A stretch of DNA of 40,559 nt from Geobacteraceae bacterium (GTDB lineage Bacteria > Desulfobacterota > Desulfuromonadia > Geobacterales > Geobacteraceae). Of this stretch, positions 9,128-39,865 are shown in pieces. The notes beneath the pieces are model-generated. The model saw nothing but the letters and a program-made list of their open reading frames with translations, ran no database searches and was not told the origin of the DNA. The stretch is taken from contig WSYB01000009.1 of the NCBI GenBank assembly GCA_009773645.1, positions 65,480-106,038 on the forward strand, given 5' to 3'. Numbering within the stretch: position 1 is the first letter of the stretch; every line of letters begins with the position of its first letter. Position numbers and translations under genes: made by a program.

Positions 9128-9499
9128 ATGGGGAAGAAGAAGATCCTTGCTGTGGATGACGAGCCCAACATTTTGATGTCCATCGAGTTCATCCTGGAGA
9201 TGGAGGGGTATGAGGTCCACACTGCGCGGGATGGGGAGGATGCCCTGGAAGTGGCCGAGCGCGTGCGGCCGGATTTGATCCTCCTGGACGTCAACATGCC
9301 CCGGAAAGATGGCTACGAGGTGTGCCGGCTGCTCCGGGAGCGGGCGGATATGGCCGGAACGAAGGTGATCATGCTCACGGCCAAGGGGCAGACCCTGGAA
9401 AAAAAGAAGGGGCTTGAGGTGGGGGCGGACGAATACGTGACAAAGCCGTTCAGTGCCGAGGATCTGCTGGAGAAGATCCGAGCGATGATCGAGCCATGA
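9128..9499 (+). CDS. Single-domain response regulator
   Basis: A 123-residue CheY-like receiver with no output domain. The acidic pair is D10/D11, the phospho-acceptor D54 (LLDVNMPRKDG), the switch threonine T84 and the conserved lysine K106 (VTKPFS), so it should be phosphorylatable. It overlaps the next gene by 4 bp (ATGA), which indicates translational coupling to the membrane sensor-exonuclease. The likely phosphodonor is the histidine kinase encoded at 12433, because the directly coupled sensor lacks kinase motifs. With no DNA-binding domain it probably acts by protein contact. Start chosen at 9128 behind GGGGA. Confidence 0.92.
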   Translation: MGKKKILAVDDEPNILMSIEFILEMEGYEVHTARDGEDALEVAERVRPDLILLDVNMPRKDGYEVCRLLRERADMAGTKVIMLTAKGQTLEKKKGLEVGADEYVTKPFSAEDLLEKIRAMIEP

Positions 9500-12225
9500 C
9501 CGCTGACCAGGAGGCACGGCCTCCCCGCCGGAAAAAAAGCCTGCGCCACCGTTTGATCGTTTCTCTCACCGGCCTGGCGGTGCTCCCCCTGATAGTTGCA
9601 ATGGCGGCCCTGTTCTTCGTGGTACGCGACGACGTGGGTGGTATCCATGGGAGTCAGCTCGCCCAGGAAGCGGGGCAGTTTGCAGACCGTCTGCGGGGGG
9701 AACTGCAGCGCTACCACCAGACCGCGGCCGCTCTGGCTGCGTTGCCGGAGGTAAGAGGTTACCTGTCCGGCTCGGCTCCCTTTCCGAAAGAGCTCCTTTC
9801 CTCGGCGCGACAATCCATCCCCATGATAACGGGGATCGATCTGGTTCCGGCGGGCCGTCCGGCGGGCCAGGGATCTTCCACCCCGCTGGTTTCCGGAAAA
9901 AACCTGGAGTACCGGCTGGCGGTCACGGACCCCAACGGTAAACCTCTGGGCGTGCTGGTGATCTCCTATGCACTGGAAGGCCTGCAACAGCTCTTCGCGC
10001 CGTCTCAGAAGGGGAAACCGGGAGGCGCAGTGCTGTTCACCGACGGGGGGCAACGCCTGGCGGGAGATCCAGGGATTCCCCTCCCCCCGCTTGCGGAAAG
10101 CGAAACCGGCTGGGTGACTTTCGGCTCCGGCGGTGAGAGCTATCTTGCCGGTGTGACGGCAGTTCGGGCGCCTGGGGGGACCGTCCCTCGCGACTGGTTC
10201 CTCGCCGTGGTCCAGCCGGCGTCCCAGGCATTCGGCCATTTATATTCGGTAAGCCGCCAGGTAGCCTTCTTCGTGATCCTGTTCGTCATTCTGGTCGCCG
10301 CCCTGGCGTGGTGGATGGCCGACCAATACATGCGCCCCATCCTGGAGATCAGGCGTGGCGCCGAGATCATCTCCCGCATCAACCTGGATCACCGGATCAA
10401 GGTCGACGCGGGGGACGAGATCGAGGAATTGGCCATCGAGTTCAACCTGATGGCCGAGAACCTGGCCAGGGCCTACGGCGAACTCGAAGGGCGCGTGCGG
10501 GAAGCGACCCGGACGTTGCAGGAAGAGCGTAATCGTCTGGCTACCGTGCTGCGCACCATGGTCGATGGTGTGGTAGTGGCCAACGAGGCCGAAGAGACCA
10601 TCCTGATGAACCCCCGTGCACGGATCATCCTGGGGCGCGGATACACGTCGGGCATAGGATCGGCCCTGTCACGCATCTTCCCCGGCGAGCGGCTCGGTTT
10701 TCACCTGAAGCGGCTTCGCCGGGGGTGGGACCCGGGCCGGGAAGCCGCGGAAGAGGTGGTTTTCCCCCTCCGGGACGGAAAGCTTTTGAAAGGCTCCCTG
10801 TCGGTTGTTCCCGGAACCGCGGGTGAGCAGGCCGGTTTTCTCCTGGTGTTTCGGGACCTGAGCACCCCCACCGAAGAGGGTGCCCGGTTCGAGGAGACCT
10901 TGCGGGAGATGCCCCAGCTCCTGAGGGGACCGGTGGCCACCTCCCGTTCTCTGGTCGAAACGCTCCAACGACACAGAGAGATGTCCGCGGAAAAACAGCA
11001 GGCTTTTCTGACGGCGCTGGCGGAGGAGATGGATCGTTTGAGCGGACGGGTGACGGCAATGGAAGAGGCTGCCAGAACTGCCCGGGAGTCGCGCTGGCCG
11101 GCCATTCCTTCCAATCCGCGGGAACTTCTGGATGAGGCGGTGGTTTCGGTTGCCGGGCTCGCAGTTGAGATCGAGGAGAGCGGCGATCCGATCCCTCCTG
11201 TCCTGGTGGAGCCTTTCTCCTGGGTGGCCTCTATGGAGTGCGTCCTGGAGTGGCTCGGGCAAAGGGGGGCCGGCGGGCTGCCGATCGGTGCAAACCTCCG
11301 GGTGGAGGACGGGACCGTGGTTACCACTTTTCGGGTCAAGTGCCCCTTCGCCGGCGACCCTGCGGAACTGGAAACCCTGGAGCTCTCTCCTGAAGGCGAG
11401 GAGCCGCTACCCCTGGGAGAAACGGTGCGGAAAAACCGGGGTGAGCTTTGGACCCGCTCTTGCGGCGATTCATTTGAGGTGCGACTGGCTCTGATGCAGG
11501 CAGGCGCCGTGAGCGAAGGGCGCCGGGCAGACGGGCTGATCGAGGGGGAACCGGAGTTCTACAACTTCGATCTGTTCCTGCCGCGGCCGGTATTCGAGCG
11601 GGAAGAGCTGCTCAATGCCAATCTGGCCGATCTCGACTACGTGGTGGTCGATACCGAGACTACGGGGCTACAGCTTTCCCAGGGGGACAAGGTCATCAGC
11701 ATCAGCGGCATCCGCATCCGCCGGGGGCGCGTCCAGAACGCCGGCATCTTTAACACACTGGTCAACCCGGGCCGGCTGATCCCTCCCGAGTCCGTGGAGA
11801 TCCACCACATCGAGGATTACATGGTGACGGGCGCTCCCTCCATGAGCGAGGTGTATCCGCAGTTCGTCGAGTACGTGGGAGACGCAGTGCTGGTGGCCCA
11901 CAACGCGGCATTCGACAAGAAGTGCCTCGACATGGCTGCGGCCGAAGCCGGCCTCCCCCAGATCGACAACCCGATCCTCGATACCCTGTTCCTCTCCTAC
12001 GCCCTGCACCAGGAGATCGAAGGGCACAGCCTCGAAGCCATCGCTGCGCGCATGGGGGTCACCATCGAGGGGCGGCACACCTCCCTGGGAGATGCCCGTG
12101 CCACCGCCCATATCTTCCTGGATCTCCTCACGCTGCTGCCGGCGCGGGGCGTGAGAACCCTTGCAGAAGCCAAGGCCTTCTGCGACAGGCACCTGCTACT
12201 GCGTTGGCAGACGTCCAGATTCTGA
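9496..12225 (+). CDS. Membrane HAMP-PAS sensor (degenerate kinase) fused to a DEDDh 3'-5' exonuclease
   Basis: A 909-residue fusion. Seen in order: transmembrane helix about 22-43, extracytoplasmic sensor about 45-250, second helix about 255-275, HAMP about 277-330, coiled coil, PAS-like region about 345-455, and a helical region where a histidine-kinase core would stand (about 465-665). That region lacks the SHELRTP histidine (it reads MPQLLRGPVATSRSL) and has no recognisable N, G1 or G2 ATP-binding boxes. From about 713 to 895 there is a DnaQ-type exonuclease with ExoI DTETTG (D719, E721), ExoII HNAAFDKK (D807) and ExoIII H861...D866, all acidic ligands present. The nuclease domain should be active and cytoplasmic, under control of a membrane sensor. 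Its substrate is unknown. Confidence 0.85.
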   Translation: MTADQEARPPRRKKSLRHRLIVSLTGLAVLPLIVAMAALFFVVRDDVGGIHGSQLAQEAGQFADRLRGELQRYHQTAAALAALPEVRGYLSGSAPFPKELLSSARQSIPMITGIDLVPAGRPAGQGSSTPLVSGKNLEYRLAVTDPNGKPLGVLVISYALEGLQQLFAPSQKGKPGGAVLFTDGGQRLAGDPGIPLPPLAESETGWVTFGSGGESYLAGVTAVRAPGGTVPRDWFLAVVQPASQAFGHLYSVSRQVAFFVILFVILVAALAWWMADQYMRPILEIRRGAEIISRINLDHRIKVDAGDEIEELAIEFNLMAENLARAYGELEGRVREATRTLQEERNRLATVLRTMVDGVVVANEAEETILMNPRARIILGRGYTSGIGSALSRIFPGERLGFHLKRLRRGWDPGREAAEEVVFPLRDGKLLKGSLSVVPGTAGEQAGFLLVFRDLSTPTEEGARFEETLREMPQLLRGPVATSRSLVETLQRHREMSAEKQQAFLTALAEEMDRLSGRVTAMEEAARTARESRWPAIPSNPRELLDEAVVSVAGLAVEIEESGDPIPPVLVEPFSWVASMECVLEWLGQRGAGGLPIGANLRVEDGTVVTTFRVKCPFAGDPAELETLELSPEGEEPLPLGETVRKNRGELWTRSCGDSFEVRLALMQAGAVSEGRRADGLIEGEPEFYNFDLFLPRPVFEREELLNANLADLDYVVVDTETTGLQLSQGDKVISISGIRIRRGRVQNAGIFNTLVNPGRLIPPESVEIHHIEDYMVTGAPSMSEVYPQFVEYVGDAVLVAHNAAFDKKCLDMAAAEAGLPQIDNPILDTLFLSYALHQEIEGHSLEAIAARMGVTIEGRHTSLGDARATAHIFLDLLTLLPARGVRTLAEAKAFCDRHLLLRWQTSRF

Positions 12226-35279: not shown

Positions 35280-35690
35280 ATGGCCGACGTATTGACGCCT
35301 TCTCAACGAAGTTACTGCATGTCGCGCATTCGCAGTAAGAACACTGGTCCGGAAATCATGCTGAGACGGGCACTTTTCCAGAAAGGCCTGAGGTATAAGG
35401 TAAAATCACTGTTAGCGGGCAAGCCAGATATTGTTTTTAGCACGGCTCGTGTGGCGATTTTTGTTGATGGCTGTTTTTGGCACGGTTGCCCGGACCACTC
35501 ACGAAGCCCAAAGACCAATGCGGAATATTGGGGTCCTAAAATAGAAAAGAATATTTTGAAGGATGCGACGGCCACATTGTCGCTTGTGAGAGATGGATGG
35601 CTAGTTATACGATTATGGGAACATCAAATAAAAGATGACGTCGAGGGATGCGCCATTAAAATTGCCCGAGTAGTACATGGCTTGACTTGA
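35280..35690 (+). CDS. vsr: Very short patch repair endonuclease Vsr
   Basis: A 136-residue Vsr-type endonuclease that nicks at T:G mismatches formed by deamination of 5-methylcytosine. The family motifs are clear: SRIRSKNTGPE near the start, D50 in GKPDIVF, FVDGCFWHGCP with H68, and N80..YW..K. It precedes a C5-cytosine methyltransferase by 30 bp, the usual partner. The ribosome site is weak (AAGAAAG). Base composition is AT-richer than the housekeeping genes, suggesting transfer. Confidence 0.94.
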   Translation: MADVLTPSQRSYCMSRIRSKNTGPEIMLRRALFQKGLRYKVKSLLAGKPDIVFSTARVAIFVDGCFWHGCPDHSRSPKTNAEYWGPKIEKNILKDATATLSLVRDGWLVIRLWEHQIKDDVEGCAIKIARVVHGLT

Positions 35691-35720
35691 GTAAATAACC
35701 TTGCATATAGGTATAAATCA

Positions 35721-36731
35721 ATGATTTATCAGGATAAATTACCTGTTGTCAGTTTATTTTCCGGTGCTGGAGGCCTCGATCTTGGCTTCGGGCAAGCGGG
35801 TTTTCAAACCATTTTCGCTGCTGATTACAATTCCGCAGCTGTGAATACGTTTAATGCTAACTCTGGATATCGGAACATTGCCCGCCAGTTAGACCTTTCC
35901 ACTGTAAGCATTCACAACATCCTCAACATGATCGAAGATGTTGGAATAAAACCGGTTGGCGCTATTGGCGGACCTCCCTGCCAGGGTTTTTCGAGAGGAA
36001 ACAACAGATCCTCCGCTGATGATCCACGCAATGTCCTCCCTTTGAAATATGCCGAACTGATAGCTGGACTTCGTGACAAATTCGACATTGATTTTTTTGT
36101 TTTTGAAAATGTGCCAGGTTTGCGAGATACAAAACATGCGGAAACTTACACACTATTGAAGCAGAGCTTGGACCATGCCGGTTTTGCTCTGTTTGAGGAT
36201 GAATTAGATTCTTCCCGTTTCAGTATACCTCAAATACGCCGCAGAGTAATTTTTGTTGGAATCAATCGTGTCAAGTACCCAGACATCGACTTTTCTTTTC
36301 CTACAGGGCGTGCTCATCAGCGCACAATTCGCGATGCCATTGGACATCTCCCTGAACCAGTGTTTTTCTCCAGACACCTCACTCCAGACCAGATTCCTTT
36401 CCATAAAAACCATTGGACAATGGTCCCAAAGTCCAGGAAATTCATTGAAGGTATTGAGCCAGGAGGCAGGTCTTTCAAACGGCTATGCTGGAATGAAAAA
36501 AGCCCTACGGTTGCATATGGCCATAGGGAGATCCATGTGCATCCTGACGGCAAGAGGCGATTGAGTATTTATGAGGCGATGCTGCTGCAAGGATTTCCGA
36601 AAAAATATTTGCTTACCGGCAATTTAAGCGCGCAAGTGGAGCAAATATCTAACGCAGTCCCTCCGCCTGTTGCCAAAGCAATAGCCCTGGCAATCAAAAA
36701 GACAATTTTTACCACCACTGGTGCGTGTTAG
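35721..36731 (+). CDS. DNA cytosine-5 methyltransferase
   Basis: A 336-residue C5 methyltransferase. Motif I FSGAGGLDLGF (13-23), motif IV GGPPCQGFSRGN with catalytic C87, motif VI ENVPGL, motif VIII QIRRRVIFVGI and motif X-like QISNAVPPPVAKAIA are present, so it should be active. The target-recognition region is short and its DNA target cannot be read. No classical restriction endonuclease gene lies beside it; it is followed 10 bp later by a GHKL ATPase. A candidate modification gene of a defence cassette. Confidence 0.95.
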   Translation: MIYQDKLPVVSLFSGAGGLDLGFGQAGFQTIFAADYNSAAVNTFNANSGYRNIARQLDLSTVSIHNILNMIEDVGIKPVGAIGGPPCQGFSRGNNRSSADDPRNVLPLKYAELIAGLRDKFDIDFFVFENVPGLRDTKHAETYTLLKQSLDHAGFALFEDELDSSRFSIPQIRRRVIFVGINRVKYPDIDFSFPTGRAHQRTIRDAIGHLPEPVFFSRHLTPDQIPFHKNHWTMVPKSRKFIEGIEPGGRSFKRLCWNEKSPTVAYGHREIHVHPDGKRRLSIYEAMLLQGFPKKYLLTGNLSAQVEQISNAVPPPVAKAIALAIKKTIFTTTGAC

Positions 36732-36740
36732 CAGGGGCAA

Positions 36741-38705
36741 ATGATGGAAGAAGCTAAGCACTCCGAAAAGGACATAGCCGCTCAGATTATCGCGGGACGA
36801 ACCTCTGGCGTGGCTGTAGAAGAAAAGCTCTCCACCAGTCAAAGGGTGCTTGCGAGGGTCACAGACGGAATCTACAGGCAGCCATCATCAGCTTTGAGGG
36901 AGCTCATTGCAAATGCTTATGACGCAGACGCGACACAAGTGCATATACACACTGATGCTCCGCGATTTGATAAAATAATTGTCCGCGATAACGGGCTTGG
37001 CTTGAAAGCGGAAGTCTTAGCCCATGTAATCAAGAATATTGGCGGGAGCGCGAAGCGTACTCGCGATGGAATAGAGCTGGGCGTCACTGATTCTCATGAT
37101 CCATTGCGGTCTCCCGGCGGAAGAGAACTCATCGGCAAAATTGGAATCGGCCTCTTTTCTGTCGCCCAGCTTACCAATCATTTTCAAATCATTACCAAGG
37201 TGAAGGGTGAGAAGTTCAGGACAGTTGCCGATATTATTTTACACACCTATTCTGAAGACCATTTAGCGGAATCTGAAGAAAAGCATGAGTTTCAGACTGG
37301 CTCTGTCGTTATCTGGAGCGCGTCGGCTGAAGATATTGAGGCCCAAGGCACTGAAATAGTTTTAATTGATATCAAGAGAAGCGCCAAGGAAATCTTGCAA
37401 AGCCGTGAGCTGTGGCTGGCCGTTAGCGCCAACATGCAGCGAGCCGCTGAGGGTGAGCCTCCTGAGCTGGACATAGAGCCACCAAGTTATCATATTGGCG
37501 GTTATGCATATACCAACGGCGACCATGTTGAAATTCCCCGGAAACTCCCATGGGATGACAGTGACAAACCTTCCGAGAAATTTCATAAGCTTGTTGATGC
37601 CATGATGAACGAGCTGGGCGGCAGAACAAAACCACAGCTTAAAATGGTTTTTGACAATTACTTGCAAACAGTCTGGTCATTGAGCCTGGCTGCGCCATTG
37701 GATTATATTGACGGCCATCCATTTTCCATCACAGGCAAAGATGCTATGGAAGTGTTTTTGCTCTCTAACGAAACCAACGGGAAAGCAGTTCCTTTATTGC
37801 TGAAGGATTCGCAGACAGTTAGCAGCGCCGCTGGACTAACAACTGAAAACATGAAAAACAGCACCCCGTTTGCGATAAACATTGATGGTGTGCAGCTTTG
37901 CCGGCCGGTCAAATACAAAGGCCTGCCTGAATCTGGCCATGCGCTTAAGAATCCTTTGTTAATGATTGGCAAATGCTACCCTGATCTTTCGTCTGTGCGG
38001 GAGGAGTTTCGGGGAGGGGATCTTGAGTTCGAAGCATATCTCTTTTGGACACCCAGAGTGGTTCCTCTTGATCATGCTGGGGTTCTTATACGGATTCATG
38101 AAGCAAGCGGAACACTTTTTGAAGAGACTTTCATGAAATATCAAGTCTCTGAACTTACGCGCTTAAAGCAGATTACTGCCGAGATATTTGTGAGCAAGGG
38201 GCTTGATGGGGCACTCAACATAGACCGTGAATCTTTCAATTATGCCCACCCGCACTACCAAATTATTCAAAAATGGCTTCATGGCGCACTTCGCCAGCTT
38301 GCGACAACGCAGAAACGCTTGGCAAAGCAAGTGCGAGATCATGAGCGAGAGACACTGGTCGAAGTCCACAAGACAGTGCTTCAAAATGCCGTGGAAGAGG
38401 AGTGGGTTCGCATCAGAGGGGATGAGGAACGACCGCCAGATGTCCAATTTGTGGTAAAAGGAGACTTTGGCAGGGTCAAAGGTAATACGGGGCTTGTATT
38501 TGAGCGGGAGCGTATTTTCCCGGCAAAAACTGGAGCAGTTCGCAAAACCAGCACGAGCGCAGCCGATGAGAAGAAATTTGAAGAGCAAGTGAGAGCCGTT
38601 GCGGCAGTTCTTTCCGCTTATGGTGTTTTCGATGAAATGACACAAGAAAAACAGCAAGAGCTTCTTCGGGCAATTGCACGAATTTTCGCCGTGGAGGCTG
38701 CCTGA
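36741..38705 (+). CDS. GHKL (Hsp90/MutL/MORC-like) ATPase of the vsr-methyltransferase cassette
   Basis: A 654-residue protein. A GHKL ATP-binding domain at the N-terminus has the N box ELIANAYDAD (E54, N58), G1 VRDNGLGL (83-87) and G2 GKIGIGLFSVAQL (132-144). The middle and C-terminal parts (about 330-600) resemble no domain I can name and end in a helical segment. MutL/MORC-type ATPases next to cytosine methyltransferases and Vsr-like nucleases have been described in restriction-modification-like loci. This one probably supplies ATP-driven DNA clamping or signalling in defence. ATG 36741, or 36744. It overlaps the next gene in TGATG. Confidence 0.85.
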   Translation: MMEEAKHSEKDIAAQIIAGRTSGVAVEEKLSTSQRVLARVTDGIYRQPSSALRELIANAYDADATQVHIHTDAPRFDKIIVRDNGLGLKAEVLAHVIKNIGGSAKRTRDGIELGVTDSHDPLRSPGGRELIGKIGIGLFSVAQLTNHFQIITKVKGEKFRTVADIILHTYSEDHLAESEEKHEFQTGSVVIWSASAEDIEAQGTEIVLIDIKRSAKEILQSRELWLAVSANMQRAAEGEPPELDIEPPSYHIGGYAYTNGDHVEIPRKLPWDDSDKPSEKFHKLVDAMMNELGGRTKPQLKMVFDNYLQTVWSLSLAAPLDYIDGHPFSITGKDAMEVFLLSNETNGKAVPLLLKDSQTVSSAAGLTTENMKNSTPFAINIDGVQLCRPVKYKGLPESGHALKNPLLMIGKCYPDLSSVREEFRGGDLEFEAYLFWTPRVVPLDHAGVLIRIHEASGTLFEETFMKYQVSELTRLKQITAEIFVSKGLDGALNIDRESFNYAHPHYQIIQKWLHGALRQLATTQKRLAKQVRDHERETLVEVHKTVLQNAVEEEWVRIRGDEERPPDVQFVVKGDFGRVKGNTGLVFERERIFPAKTGAVRKTSTSAADEKKFEEQVRAVAAVLSAYGVFDEMTQEKQQELLRAIARIFAVEAA

Positions 38706-39865
38706 TGACAGAGAATCAGGATCCATTCCTTGATGAGTTCTTTCCGGCACCACCAACGCATAACAGGCCTACAACCCTTAAATCTGATTTCAAGCCCTGG
38801 CACAAACCGAGAAAACAATGGGTGCGGAAGTTTCAATGGATTCAGGAAGTTGAAAAACTCTCGCAGCAGCTGCGTTTTGAAAACGGCCGGCCTTTGAAGT
38901 ATCTTAGTTTGCCGGGCAAGGACTTGCTTGACGTTAGATGCATTCATGGATGGTGCCAGGCAAACAAAGTAAACCTCCGGTTTCTTGGATTTAACGACCC
39001 CAGCGACCCTGCCGATCCGAACGATTCGGAACTCAACCTGTCTGTGGCTGAATTGGCGCAACGCGAATTCATTGATTGCGAATCACTGGTTGTCCCGGAT
39101 AAGTTTGAAAGAATTGGCGATACGAGTTCAATTGCTTATACCAGAATGATTGAGGCAGGACCTTTTGACATCATCAATCTCGATCTCTGCAATTCAATTG
39201 CCGGGCATGTGCCATTAGAAAAGCAGGATGACTATTACAATGCCATTTTCAGGATTATTGAATTTCAAAAATCAAAAAAGGCCCAACCTTGGCTGCTTTT
39301 CATAACTACCAGGGCGAATGAGAAGGCAGTGAATCCAAGCGCTGGCCGCAAGCTGTTTCAGTGCATAGAGGATAATGCAAAATTATCTGACGAGTTTCGA
39401 GGAAGGCTCGCAACTGAGCTGGGTATTGATTTTAGCTTAAGCAACCCAGGTGTGACCTCTCGAAATCTAGTGGGCCTTGGATTAGGGAAATGGCTCCTAA
39501 AGCTGTTAATCGACGGCCAGCCAAAATGGAGCTTGAAAATGCTGGATAGCGCCGAGTATAAAGTTTACCCTCCTTCAGCAGCTCCGGATATGCTGTCTCT
39601 TGCTTTTGAATGTTCACTCATTGTTCAGCCACCAAACGACAGCGTAGGTCTCGCCAGACATCCTAATACATTAATTGCTGAAGTTGCGGAGGAGAAAGAT
39701 TTTGCTCTGGGATTGATTGACTCAGTGAAAAACATAATGGATCTCGATGTGATGATGCATGGAGATGAGCAACTTAGAAAGACAATGATAGATGAAGCCG
39801 CACATCTGATGACAGATGCGCGTTATGATGGTGCAAAATATAAAGCATGGGCAATGAACTGGTAA
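38705..39865 (+). CDS. Unrecognised cassette protein, Rossmann-like features
   Basis: A 386-residue protein with no family I can name with certainty; it resembles the PP_RS20740 group that I recall beside GHKL ATPases. An alternating pattern YLSLPGKDLLDVRCIHGWC (about 58-76) with LRFLGFND, and later FDIINLDLCNSIAG, is reminiscent of methyltransferase motif I and motif IV positions, but the glycine-rich loop is not standard. It may be a degenerate methyltransferase fold or a nuclease partner. Its start overlaps the ATPase stop, so the two are made together. AT-rich like its neighbours. Good evidence as a gene, weak for function. Confidence 0.8.
   Translation: MTENQDPFLDEFFPAPPTHNRPTTLKSDFKPWHKPRKQWVRKFQWIQEVEKLSQQLRFENGRPLKYLSLPGKDLLDVRCIHGWCQANKVNLRFLGFNDPSDPADPNDSELNLSVAELAQREFIDCESLVVPDKFERIGDTSSIAYTRMIEAGPFDIINLDLCNSIAGHVPLEKQDDYYNAIFRIIEFQKSKKAQPWLLFITTRANEKAVNPSAGRKLFQCIEDNAKLSDEFRGRLATELGIDFSLSNPGVTSRNLVGLGLGKWLLKLLIDGQPKWSLKMLDSAEYKVYPPSAAPDMLSLAFECSLIVQPPNDSVGLARHPNTLIAEVAEEKDFALGLIDSVKNIMDLDVMMHGDEQLRKTMIDEAAHLMTDARYDGAKYKAWAMNW

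What the first reader, a model, noticed from the sequence alone, without database searches (positions are those of the whole stretch)
35280..39865. Four-gene vsr, C5-methyltransferase, GHKL ATPase and Rossmann-like cassette, probably defence
The genes are tightly packed (gaps of 30 and 9 bp, then an overlap), AT-richer than the core, and sit among mobile elements and toxin-antitoxin pairs. A methylase with Vsr but no recognisable restriction enzyme suggests that the ATPase and the 386-residue protein replace the nuclease. MutL/MORC-type ATPases in restriction-like loci have been reported, but I know of no worked-out mechanism for this set.
Basis: partly seen in the sequence, partly recalled or inferred. 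Interest (0 to 1): 0.72.

Follow-up and report, generated by a model that had tools for sequence, protein, structure and literature searches.

The report
Methylase-ATPase cassette without recognised nuclease
A mobile gene set, often found in prophage-like sequences, pairs a DNA-marking methylase with a clamp-like ATPase and a methyltransferase-shaped partner protein where related systems have a DNA-cutting part, so it may be an unusual way to exclude foreign DNA.

Summary
The four genes are real, at the stated coordinates. The conserved unit is three genes: a C5-cytosine methylase (DCM), a MutL/MORC/Hsp90-type GHKL-S5 ATPase, and a PP_RS20740-family protein, together in 27 of 27 relatives with enough flank (many closely related). 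Vsr is optional: 5 of those 27, plus the window. The 386-residue protein models confidently as a class I methyltransferase fold, without the usual motif I or DPPY-type motif IV. No nuclease domain was recognised in it or in the ATPase. Full HgiDII/BbrUII-type enzymes share the ATPase's N-terminal module, lie beside Vsr, and have a nuclease-like C-terminus that is missing here. Some relatives sit in prophage sites described as anti-phage hotspots (P2-like gpA-portal; integrase-cI). ATPase and partner co-diverge (r=0.96); the DCM differs in kind in 4 of 25 rows. Best reading: a restriction-modification-like exclusion system in which the ATPase plus the methyltransferase-fold protein stand in for the endonuclease. 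Whether it cuts, entraps or modifies DNA is unknown; no phage activity was tested. GHKL-DCM-Vsr neighbourhoods are known since 2008; I found no account of this three-gene set in the searches made.

The parts
35280..35690 (+). Vsr, very-short-patch-repair endonuclease; optional companion of the methylase
   Evidence: TIGR00632 138.3 bits vs cut-off 97.85; PF03852 3.6e-28; Vsr in 5 of 27 other loci: L002, L003, L029, L036, L070
35721..36731 (+). C5-cytosine DNA methyltransferase (DCM), motifs FSGAGG, PPC, ENV, QIRRR present; core gene 1
   Evidence: PF00145 1.4e-49; motifs; best solved relative M.HaeIII, 106 bits; presumed target-recognition region conserved within the main DCM group
36741..38705 (+). 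GHKL-S5 ATPase: E54/N58, DNGLG (83), GKIGIG (132), Hsp90-like NIDRE loop with R496, HPH at 503-505, helical C-terminus; core gene 2
   Evidence: PF13589 5.3e-13; AF2 model pLDDT 80, pTM 0.76; VIA Z 16.7 Hsp90, 16.2 MORC3, 15.2 MutL; motifs
38705..39865 (+). PP_RS20740-family protein: class I methyltransferase fold with N-terminal WHKPRKQW segment and C-terminal helices; core gene 3
   Evidence: NF047698 376 bits vs cut-off 200; AF2 pLDDT 87, pTM 0.86; VIA Z 13.0 to Trm1, rmsd 4.5, 231 aligned; no significant Pfam match in 25 members (best E 0.026), none in PADLOC for the window protein, none in PHROGs for three phage-contig members

Best explanation
It is a restriction-modification-like exclusion system built on three proteins. 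Step 1 (inferred from family): the DCM methylates a fixed site in self DNA; where present, Vsr repairs the T:G mismatches that m5C deamination leaves. Step 2 (inferred from fold and conserved motifs): the GHKL-S5 ATPase dimerises on ATP and closes as a clamp, as MutL, MORC and Hsp90 do. Step 3 (inferred from strict linkage, overlapping genes and co-divergence): the PP_RS20740 protein is the obligate partner of the ATPase and stands where HgiDII/BbrUII-type enzymes carry their nuclease-like part. It uses a conserved pocket of methyltransferase shape to read DNA, cofactor or the bound methylase, and so licenses or carries out the attack on unmethylated incoming DNA. The final act (cutting by an unrecognised site, or ATP-dependent entrapment) is not shown.
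For: DCM+GHKL+RS20740 in 27 of 27 flanked relatives; in 22 of 27 the DCM is directly upstream on the same strand within 15 bp. GHKL and RS20740 ORFs overlap in 22 of 24 loci measured. Distance matrices over 25 rows: GHKL-RS r=0.958, DCM-GHKL 0.713, DCM-RS 0.762. The DCM is of another kind in 4 of 25 rows while the pair persists. 3 of 3 new contigs found by the ATPase alone carry RS20740 and a DCM. Placement in some prophage-like loci: gpA-triad-portal (L017) and integrase-triad-cI-type repressor (L015 group), kinds of site described as anti-phage hotspots. Full HgiDII/BbrUII-family enzymes (L056, L057) share the GHKL module, lie beside Vsr and have an extra C-terminal region. In other paraMORC proteins the C-terminal module varies: RE-fold nuclease, TIR (PMC2292703), HEPN/Ymh (PMC3710099 passages; Ymh also seen in L061), so a separate RS20740 would be one more module. 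RS20740 invariants lie on the loops after strands 1, 4 and 5 and in the N-terminal segment. Foreign composition.
Against: No activity data. No nuclease found, so 'restriction' is by analogy. In L003 a type II enzyme of NgoMIV type sits between DCM and GHKL, so there the pair is no simple replacement. A role in protecting or regulating the phage itself would give the same neighbourhoods. Foldseek TM-scores of the RS20740 model to PDB chains are low (TMq 0.25-0.36 in the 50 rows shown), so it is a distant member of the fold. DCM distances also correlate with the other two (no permutation of 2000 reached the values). A mutant form of P. putida PP_RS20740, overexpressed, was reported to raise furfural tolerance (PMC9630843, passages). 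Many viral loci are close relatives, so 27 is not 27 independent cases.
Confidence: 0.55

Rival explanations
1. Split nuclease-type R-M: one of the two proteins is a true endonuclease with an unrecognised active site (the HPH of the ATPase, or the pocket of RS20740), so the system is an ATP-dependent type II-like restriction enzyme in two chains.
For: An HxH (HPH, or HTH in L004) is present in 22 of 22 ATPases; Iyer et al. 2008 suggested an HxH nuclease site for paraMORC5 (PMC2292703); HgiDII/BbrUII-type relatives carry a nuclease-like C-terminus in a similar setting.
Against: HPH directly follows the Hsp90-like NIDRE loop and may be structural; no nuclease among the 50 listed matches of either model that bears on this, which excludes nothing; few conserved residues and no conserved ExK set after residue 528; RS20740 folds as a methyltransferase.
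Confidence: 0.25
2. RS20740 is an active SAM enzyme that adds a second modification (to DNA, RNA or protein) with the ATPase as its loader; the set is a modification or regulatory module, possibly protecting the prophage from host restriction, not attacking others.
For: Class I methyltransferase fold; N158, D160, C162 and T201 are invariant in 25 of 25 rows, on the active face; carriage on viral contigs.
Against: GxGxG motif I and (D/N/S)PP(Y/F/W) motif IV absent, and the residue at the end of strand 2 is Asn in 21 of 25; six of the 50 VIA rows are plant SCL3, RGA and SCARECROW-type proteins, which use this fold as regulators (names; their lack of catalysis is recalled); a dedicated ATPase partner is unusual for a simple modification enzyme.
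Confidence: 0.15
3. Solitary methylase with Vsr as an addiction or repair unit, the last two genes being unrelated cargo.
For: Vsr and DCM look intact in the window; a Dcm-Vsr pair recurs in many defence contexts (PMC5704561, passages).
Against: The last two genes were not seen without a DCM in 27 loci from four named phyla and viral contigs; overlapping reading frames; Vsr mostly absent.
Confidence: 0.05

Closest known systems
HgiDII/BbrUII-type GHKL restriction enzymes (NF050001)
   Same: GHKL module related over residues 28-215 (hhalign prob 98.5%). Full members L056 and L057 lie beside Vsr; relatives under the cut-off lie beside DCM (L059, L061) or both (L060); L058 beside neither in its short flank
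   Different: Single protein with an extra C-terminal nuclease-like part; no PP_RS20740 hit in these short flanks; the window protein scores 64.7 bits against a cut-off of 550
MORC/paraMORC R-M neighbourhoods (Iyer, Abhiman, Aravind 2008, PMC2292703)
   Same: GHKL-S5 ATPases with DCM, Vsr and endonuclease genes; paraMORC5 is described with an HxH motif, present here in 22 of 22
   Different: MORC signature absent in 22 of 22; the main text, read whole, names no methyltransferase-fold partner other than the DNA methylases; figures and supplement were not available
VcSduA / GHKL-Shedu (paraMORC3) of Vibrio cholerae
   Same: N-terminal GHKL ATPase in a tested anti-phage protein (PMC12137116, passages)
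   Different: VcSduA is one protein with a C-terminal PD-(D/E)xK DUF4263 domain; no such match here, and here a methylase and a partner accompany the ATPase
paraMORC-Ymh (HEPN) proteins in R-M loci
   Same: paraMORC ATPase with a non-RE effector module in R-M neighbourhoods (PMC3710099, passages)
   Different: Effector fused as a HEPN domain; here the partner is a separate methyltransferase-fold protein
NgoMIV-type type II R-M
   Same: In L003 an NgoMIV enzyme gene lies between DCM and GHKL
   Different: Not found in the window; seen in one of 27 loci, of which only some flanking ORFs were scanned

Membership tests
Vsr | Full-length match above curated cut-off | tested here: met
   TIGR00632 138.3 vs 97.85 bits
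C5-cytosine methyltransferase | PF00145 over cut-off and motifs PC, ENV, QxRxR | tested here: met
   169.8 vs 22 bits; motifs at 85, 129, 171
PP_RS20740 family | NF047698 over cut-off | tested here: met
   376.3 vs 200 bits
GHKL ATPase | HATPase_c_3 over cut-off; N, G1 and G2 boxes | tested here: met
   49.6 vs 25 bits; E54..N58, DNGLG 83, GKIGIG 132, key residues invariant in 22 rows
Prokaryotic MORC (Iyer 2008) | GhXhhpXXRhl motif in the S5 domain | tested here: not met
   0 of 22 members by pattern search
paraMORC5 (Iyer 2008) | C-terminal HxH motif; sequence membership | tested here: inconclusive
   HxH in 22 of 22, but no paraMORC5 sequence was at hand
HgiDII/BbrUII restriction enzyme | NF050001 over cut-off, with the C-terminal part | tested here: not met
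   64.7 vs 550 bits, residues 36-218 only; hhalign covers 28-215
Shedu / paraMORC3 | C-terminal DUF4263 PD-(D/E)xK nuclease | tested here: not met
   No such Pfam match in any of the four proteins at E up to 1
Class I SAM methyltransferase (RS20740 protein) | Class I fold | tested here: met
   VIA Z 13.0, most of the 50 rows are methyltransferases; Foldseek best E 5.9e-05, TM-scores low
Class I SAM methyltransferase (RS20740 protein) | GxGxG motif I and, for amino-MTases, (D/N/S)PP(Y/F/W) | tested here: not met
   LPGxDLLD and NxDxC instead, 25 rows
Class I SAM methyltransferase (RS20740 protein) | SAM binding and methyl transfer | not testable with these tools
   Needs protein
Type II restriction-modification | Methylase with cognate endonuclease in the locus | tested here: inconclusive
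   Methylase met; no endonuclease other than Vsr recognised in the four genes, apart from weak REase_II matches to the ATPase's GHKL part
Anti-phage defence system | Lowers phage or plasmid success | not testable with these tools
   Only position in some loci is available

The most novel reading that the evidence does not exclude
Restriction without a nuclease: DCM methylation marks self, RS20740 reads its absence, and the MORC/MutL-like ATPase topologically entraps or compacts unmarked DNA so that it cannot be expressed or replicated. This would be a bacterial, methylation-guided counterpart of eukaryotic MORC silencing.
Probability: 0.2. Interest if true: 0.88.

Novelty: new variant of a known kind. 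Interest (0 to 1): 0.62.

Why it matters
This family is compact (three genes, about 4.2 kb), partly prophage-borne, and no nuclease domain was recognised in it. Its name gene, PP_RS20740, lies in the laboratory strain Pseudomonas putida KT2440; the operon there was not examined. So 'what does a MORC/MutL-like ATPase do to DNA that lacks the methyl mark?' becomes directly testable. If it excludes DNA without cutting it, it would link bacterial immunity to eukaryotic MORC silencing, which also works with DNA methylation.

Tried and rejected
Four-gene cassette: rejected, Vsr in 5 of 27 other loci; several viral contigs begin just upstream of the triad, so a Vsr gene beyond the edge could be missed. 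TcmP (TIGR04474) kinship of RS20740: hhalign prob 0.1, but only 3 of 7 loci gave a protein for that alignment, so weak. Trm1 (PF02005): in 198 genomes only partial matches, 4 over the cut-off, not pursued; the likeness of NxDxC to a Trm1-type DxDPxG motif is recalled, no call shows it. Sequence search of solved structures with RS20740: one match at E 0.27. The Foldseek/VIA rows shown for both models held no restriction-type nuclease; absence there excludes nothing. ATPase residues after about 528 are barely covered by matches. Distribution: NF047698 in 1 of 58 relatives and 1 of 395 of the own phylum (the own genome both times), 1 of 25 in the genus of L008 (itself); A3 in 2 of 398 of the phylum of L004 (one itself). 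No match in plasmids or phages with two queries each; none in E. coli by megablast of L026. Recognition site of the DCM: not deducible. REase genes near other loci: only chosen flanking ORFs were scanned. Papers: searches listed no paper that I could recognise as describing the three-gene set. Opened: PMC2292703 (whole main text), and passages only of PMC8011034, PMC9630843, PMC12137116, PMC5867850, PMC12839542, PMC9122126, PMC3710099 and PMC5704561; term searches without a hit or without a relevant hit in PMC12707154, PMC8989522 and PMC13343189. The other listed papers were seen as listings only.

Rows dropped before counts: L010 and L012 (contig edge, RS20740 only) from linkage; L001, L014, L028, L030-L032, L034, L035, L037-L045, L068, L069 are refetches of places already counted; A3 leaves out L018; A4 leaves out L018 and L023 (ATPase split in two frames, not mended); one search leaves out L018, L023 and L070. 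L017/L018/L022, L026/L027 and the L015 group are near relatives, so counts overstate independence. Starts of RS20740 in L017, L022 and L023 were set by hand.
Full report
Observation. Four + strand genes lie at 35280-35690, 35721-36731, 36741-38705 and 38705-39865, spaced 30 and 9 bp and then overlapping by 1 bp. They are Vsr, a C5-cytosine methylase, a GHKL ATPase and a member of NCBIfam PP_RS20740, each over a curated cut-off. GC3 is 0.42-0.47 against 0.75-0.79 in four long genes elsewhere in the window. A toxin-antitoxin-like pair and a transposase lie upstream. The contig ends with the window, about 700 bp downstream of the cassette.

The conserved unit. Relatives of the 386-aa protein came from genome contigs (8 loci) and viral contigs (4 loci; 17 with the alignment, the same 4 included). 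A search with the ATPase alignment gave 18 viral loci, three on new contigs, and a sample of 398 genomes gave one new place. Of all these, 27 loci have enough flank, and all 27 carry the GHKL gene (split in L023), the PP_RS20740 gene and a DCM. In 22 of 27 the DCM is directly upstream on the same strand within 15 bp. The exceptions are L003 (NgoMIV-type enzyme gene between), L009 (269 bp gap), and L033, L036 and L070 (DCM on the other strand beside RS20740). Vsr occurs in L002, L003, L029, L036 and L070 only, in varying places. Two loci cut by a contig edge were left out, and several loci are near relatives.

Who travels with whom. Over 25 rows, pairwise distances of GHKL and RS20740 correlate at 0.958, DCM-GHKL at 0.713 and DCM-RS at 0.762; no permutation of 2000 reached any of the three. 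In 21 of 25 rows (window included) the DCM belongs to one group, 46-50% identical to the window's. In four (L002, L003, L009, L029) it is a different DCM at 26-28%, though its ATPase and partner stay in the family. In the ATPase tree these four do not form one group, but their branches are long and weakly supported, so the number of exchanges is unsure. Within the main DCM group the presumed recognition region (about residues 225-285) is strongly conserved, which suggests, but does not prove, one shared target.

What the proteins are. The ATPase model (pLDDT 80, pTM 0.76) matches Hsp90 (Z 16.7), MORC3 (16.2), MutL (15.2) and topoisomerase VI-B (14.3) over residues about 31-528. Key GHKL residues, most of an Hsp90-like NIDRES loop and the two His of the HxH are invariant in 22 rows. 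After residue 528 there are helices and few conserved residues. The PP_RS20740 model is confident (pLDDT 87, pTM 0.86) and is a class I methyltransferase fold: best VIA Z 13.0 (Trm1, rmsd 4.5, 231 aligned), many others within 1-2, six of the 50 rows being plant SCL3/RGA/SCARECROW-type proteins. Foldseek agrees (best E 5.9e-05) but with low TM-scores. Among the residues invariant in 25 of 25 rows are W32-H33, P35-R36-K37, R41, Q44-W45, P70-G71, D76, N158, D160, C162, T201, W263, Y285, S298, D312 and D348. The usual glycine motif and the DPPY-type motif are absent. None of 25 members has a significant Pfam match (best E 0.026); the window protein has none in PADLOC and three phage-contig members none in PHROGs.

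Comparison with GHKL restriction enzymes. In a phylum sample, 2 of 198 genomes carry a match over the HgiDII/BbrUII cut-off (L056, L057). Both lie beside a Vsr. Of four further relatives under the cut-off, L059 and L061 lie beside a DCM, L060 beside both, and L058 beside neither in its short flank. Profile alignment of L056, L057 and L060 to the window family covers only residues 28-215. L056 and L057 end in a stretch that reads by eye as D...ELK, of PD-(D/E)xK type; Pfam does not name it, while L061 ends in a Ymh domain, a HEPN type reported on paraMORC C-termini in R-M loci (PMC3710099, passages). So the C-terminal module of such ATPases varies. The window family has no such part and has RS20740 as a separate protein. 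This is the best support for 'the two genes replace the nuclease', but L003, with an NgoMIV-type enzyme as well, shows the pair can also accompany a nuclease.

Setting. L017 has gpA, the triad, then the portal gene; L022 has repressor and CII genes, the triad, then portal. L015, L016, L019, L020 and L023 have the triad between the contig's first ORF (integrase in the three tested: L015, L019, L023) and a cI-type S24 repressor several kb downstream (all five). Rousset et al. 2022 describe the gpA-portal locus of P2-like phages, and a cI-integrase locus of a P2-related phage in Vibrionaceae, as anti-phage hotspots (PMC9122126, passages); that the L015 group is of that phage type was not tested. 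L021 and L024 carry antitermination Q upstream. L005 has a VgrG-like gene downstream, L002 an HsdR gene, and L006 and L070 integrases. This is the setting of mobile exclusion systems; it is not proof of function.

Mechanism. Shown: linkage, predicted folds, motifs, position in some loci. Inferred: DCM marks self, the ATPase closes as an ATP-gated clamp, and RS20740 is its obligate reader or effector. Because the DCM can differ in kind while RS20740 persists, I think RS20740 reads the methylase or a general feature rather than one sequence; this is inference. Precedent for a GHKL protein in defence is VcSduA, where both ATPase and nuclease residues were needed (PMC12137116, passages). Precedent for GHKL clamps acting on DNA without cutting is C. 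elegans MORC-1 entrapment, as stated in the abstract of PMC8277788 (search listing). The role of Vsr in repairing deaminated m5C is stated in PMC8011034 (passages).

Known or new. Iyer et al. 2008 (PMC2292703; main text read whole; figures and supplement not held) described MORC and paraMORC ATPases with DCM, Vsr and nucleases, and proposed DNA looping; P. putida is among the species in its alignment. The window ATPase lacks the MORC motif (0 of 22) but has the HxH given for paraMORC5 (22 of 22). So the kind is known, and its ATPase may already have been in that paper's lists. In the paper searches made I found no description of the three-gene set or of RS20740 as a methyltransferase-fold partner. 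The only paper those searches gave for PP_RS20740 is a furfural-tolerance study. PADLOC (2023) gives only weak REase_II matches to these ATPases, in the window protein to its N-terminus. I call it a new variant of a known kind.

Noticed in passing
L003:3605-4774: NgoMIV-type restriction enzyme gene (PF09015, 3.1e-51) between DCM and the GHKL gene, with Vsr behind RS20740: an R-M system with the GHKL-RS20740 pair added.
   Followed up: partly
L056, L057, L060: GHKL restriction-enzyme-like proteins (L056 and L057 over the BbrUII cut-off, L060 under it) also sit beside Vsr, so Vsr is a recurrent companion of GHKL-type R-M.
   Followed up: partly
window:34033-34553: Unstab_antitox antitoxin and a ParE-like toxin (just under its Pfam cut-off) directly upstream of the cassette.
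   Followed up: no
window:40310-40460: Repeated ttccggggac-type motifs near the contig end, perhaps the repeat that broke the assembly.
   Followed up: no
L036:1327-2559 and 9225-10373: Two DCM genes flank the GHKL-RS20740 pair, one near a Vsr gene.
   Followed up: no
L023:2246-4230: ATPase gene split in two frames (417 and 243 aa) in a viral contig, a decayed or frameshifted copy.
   Followed up: no
G000:C61:22367-22924 (L062, L071): A second GHKL protein in the same genome with a partial match to the BbrUII family (111 bits), not part of this family.
   Followed up: no
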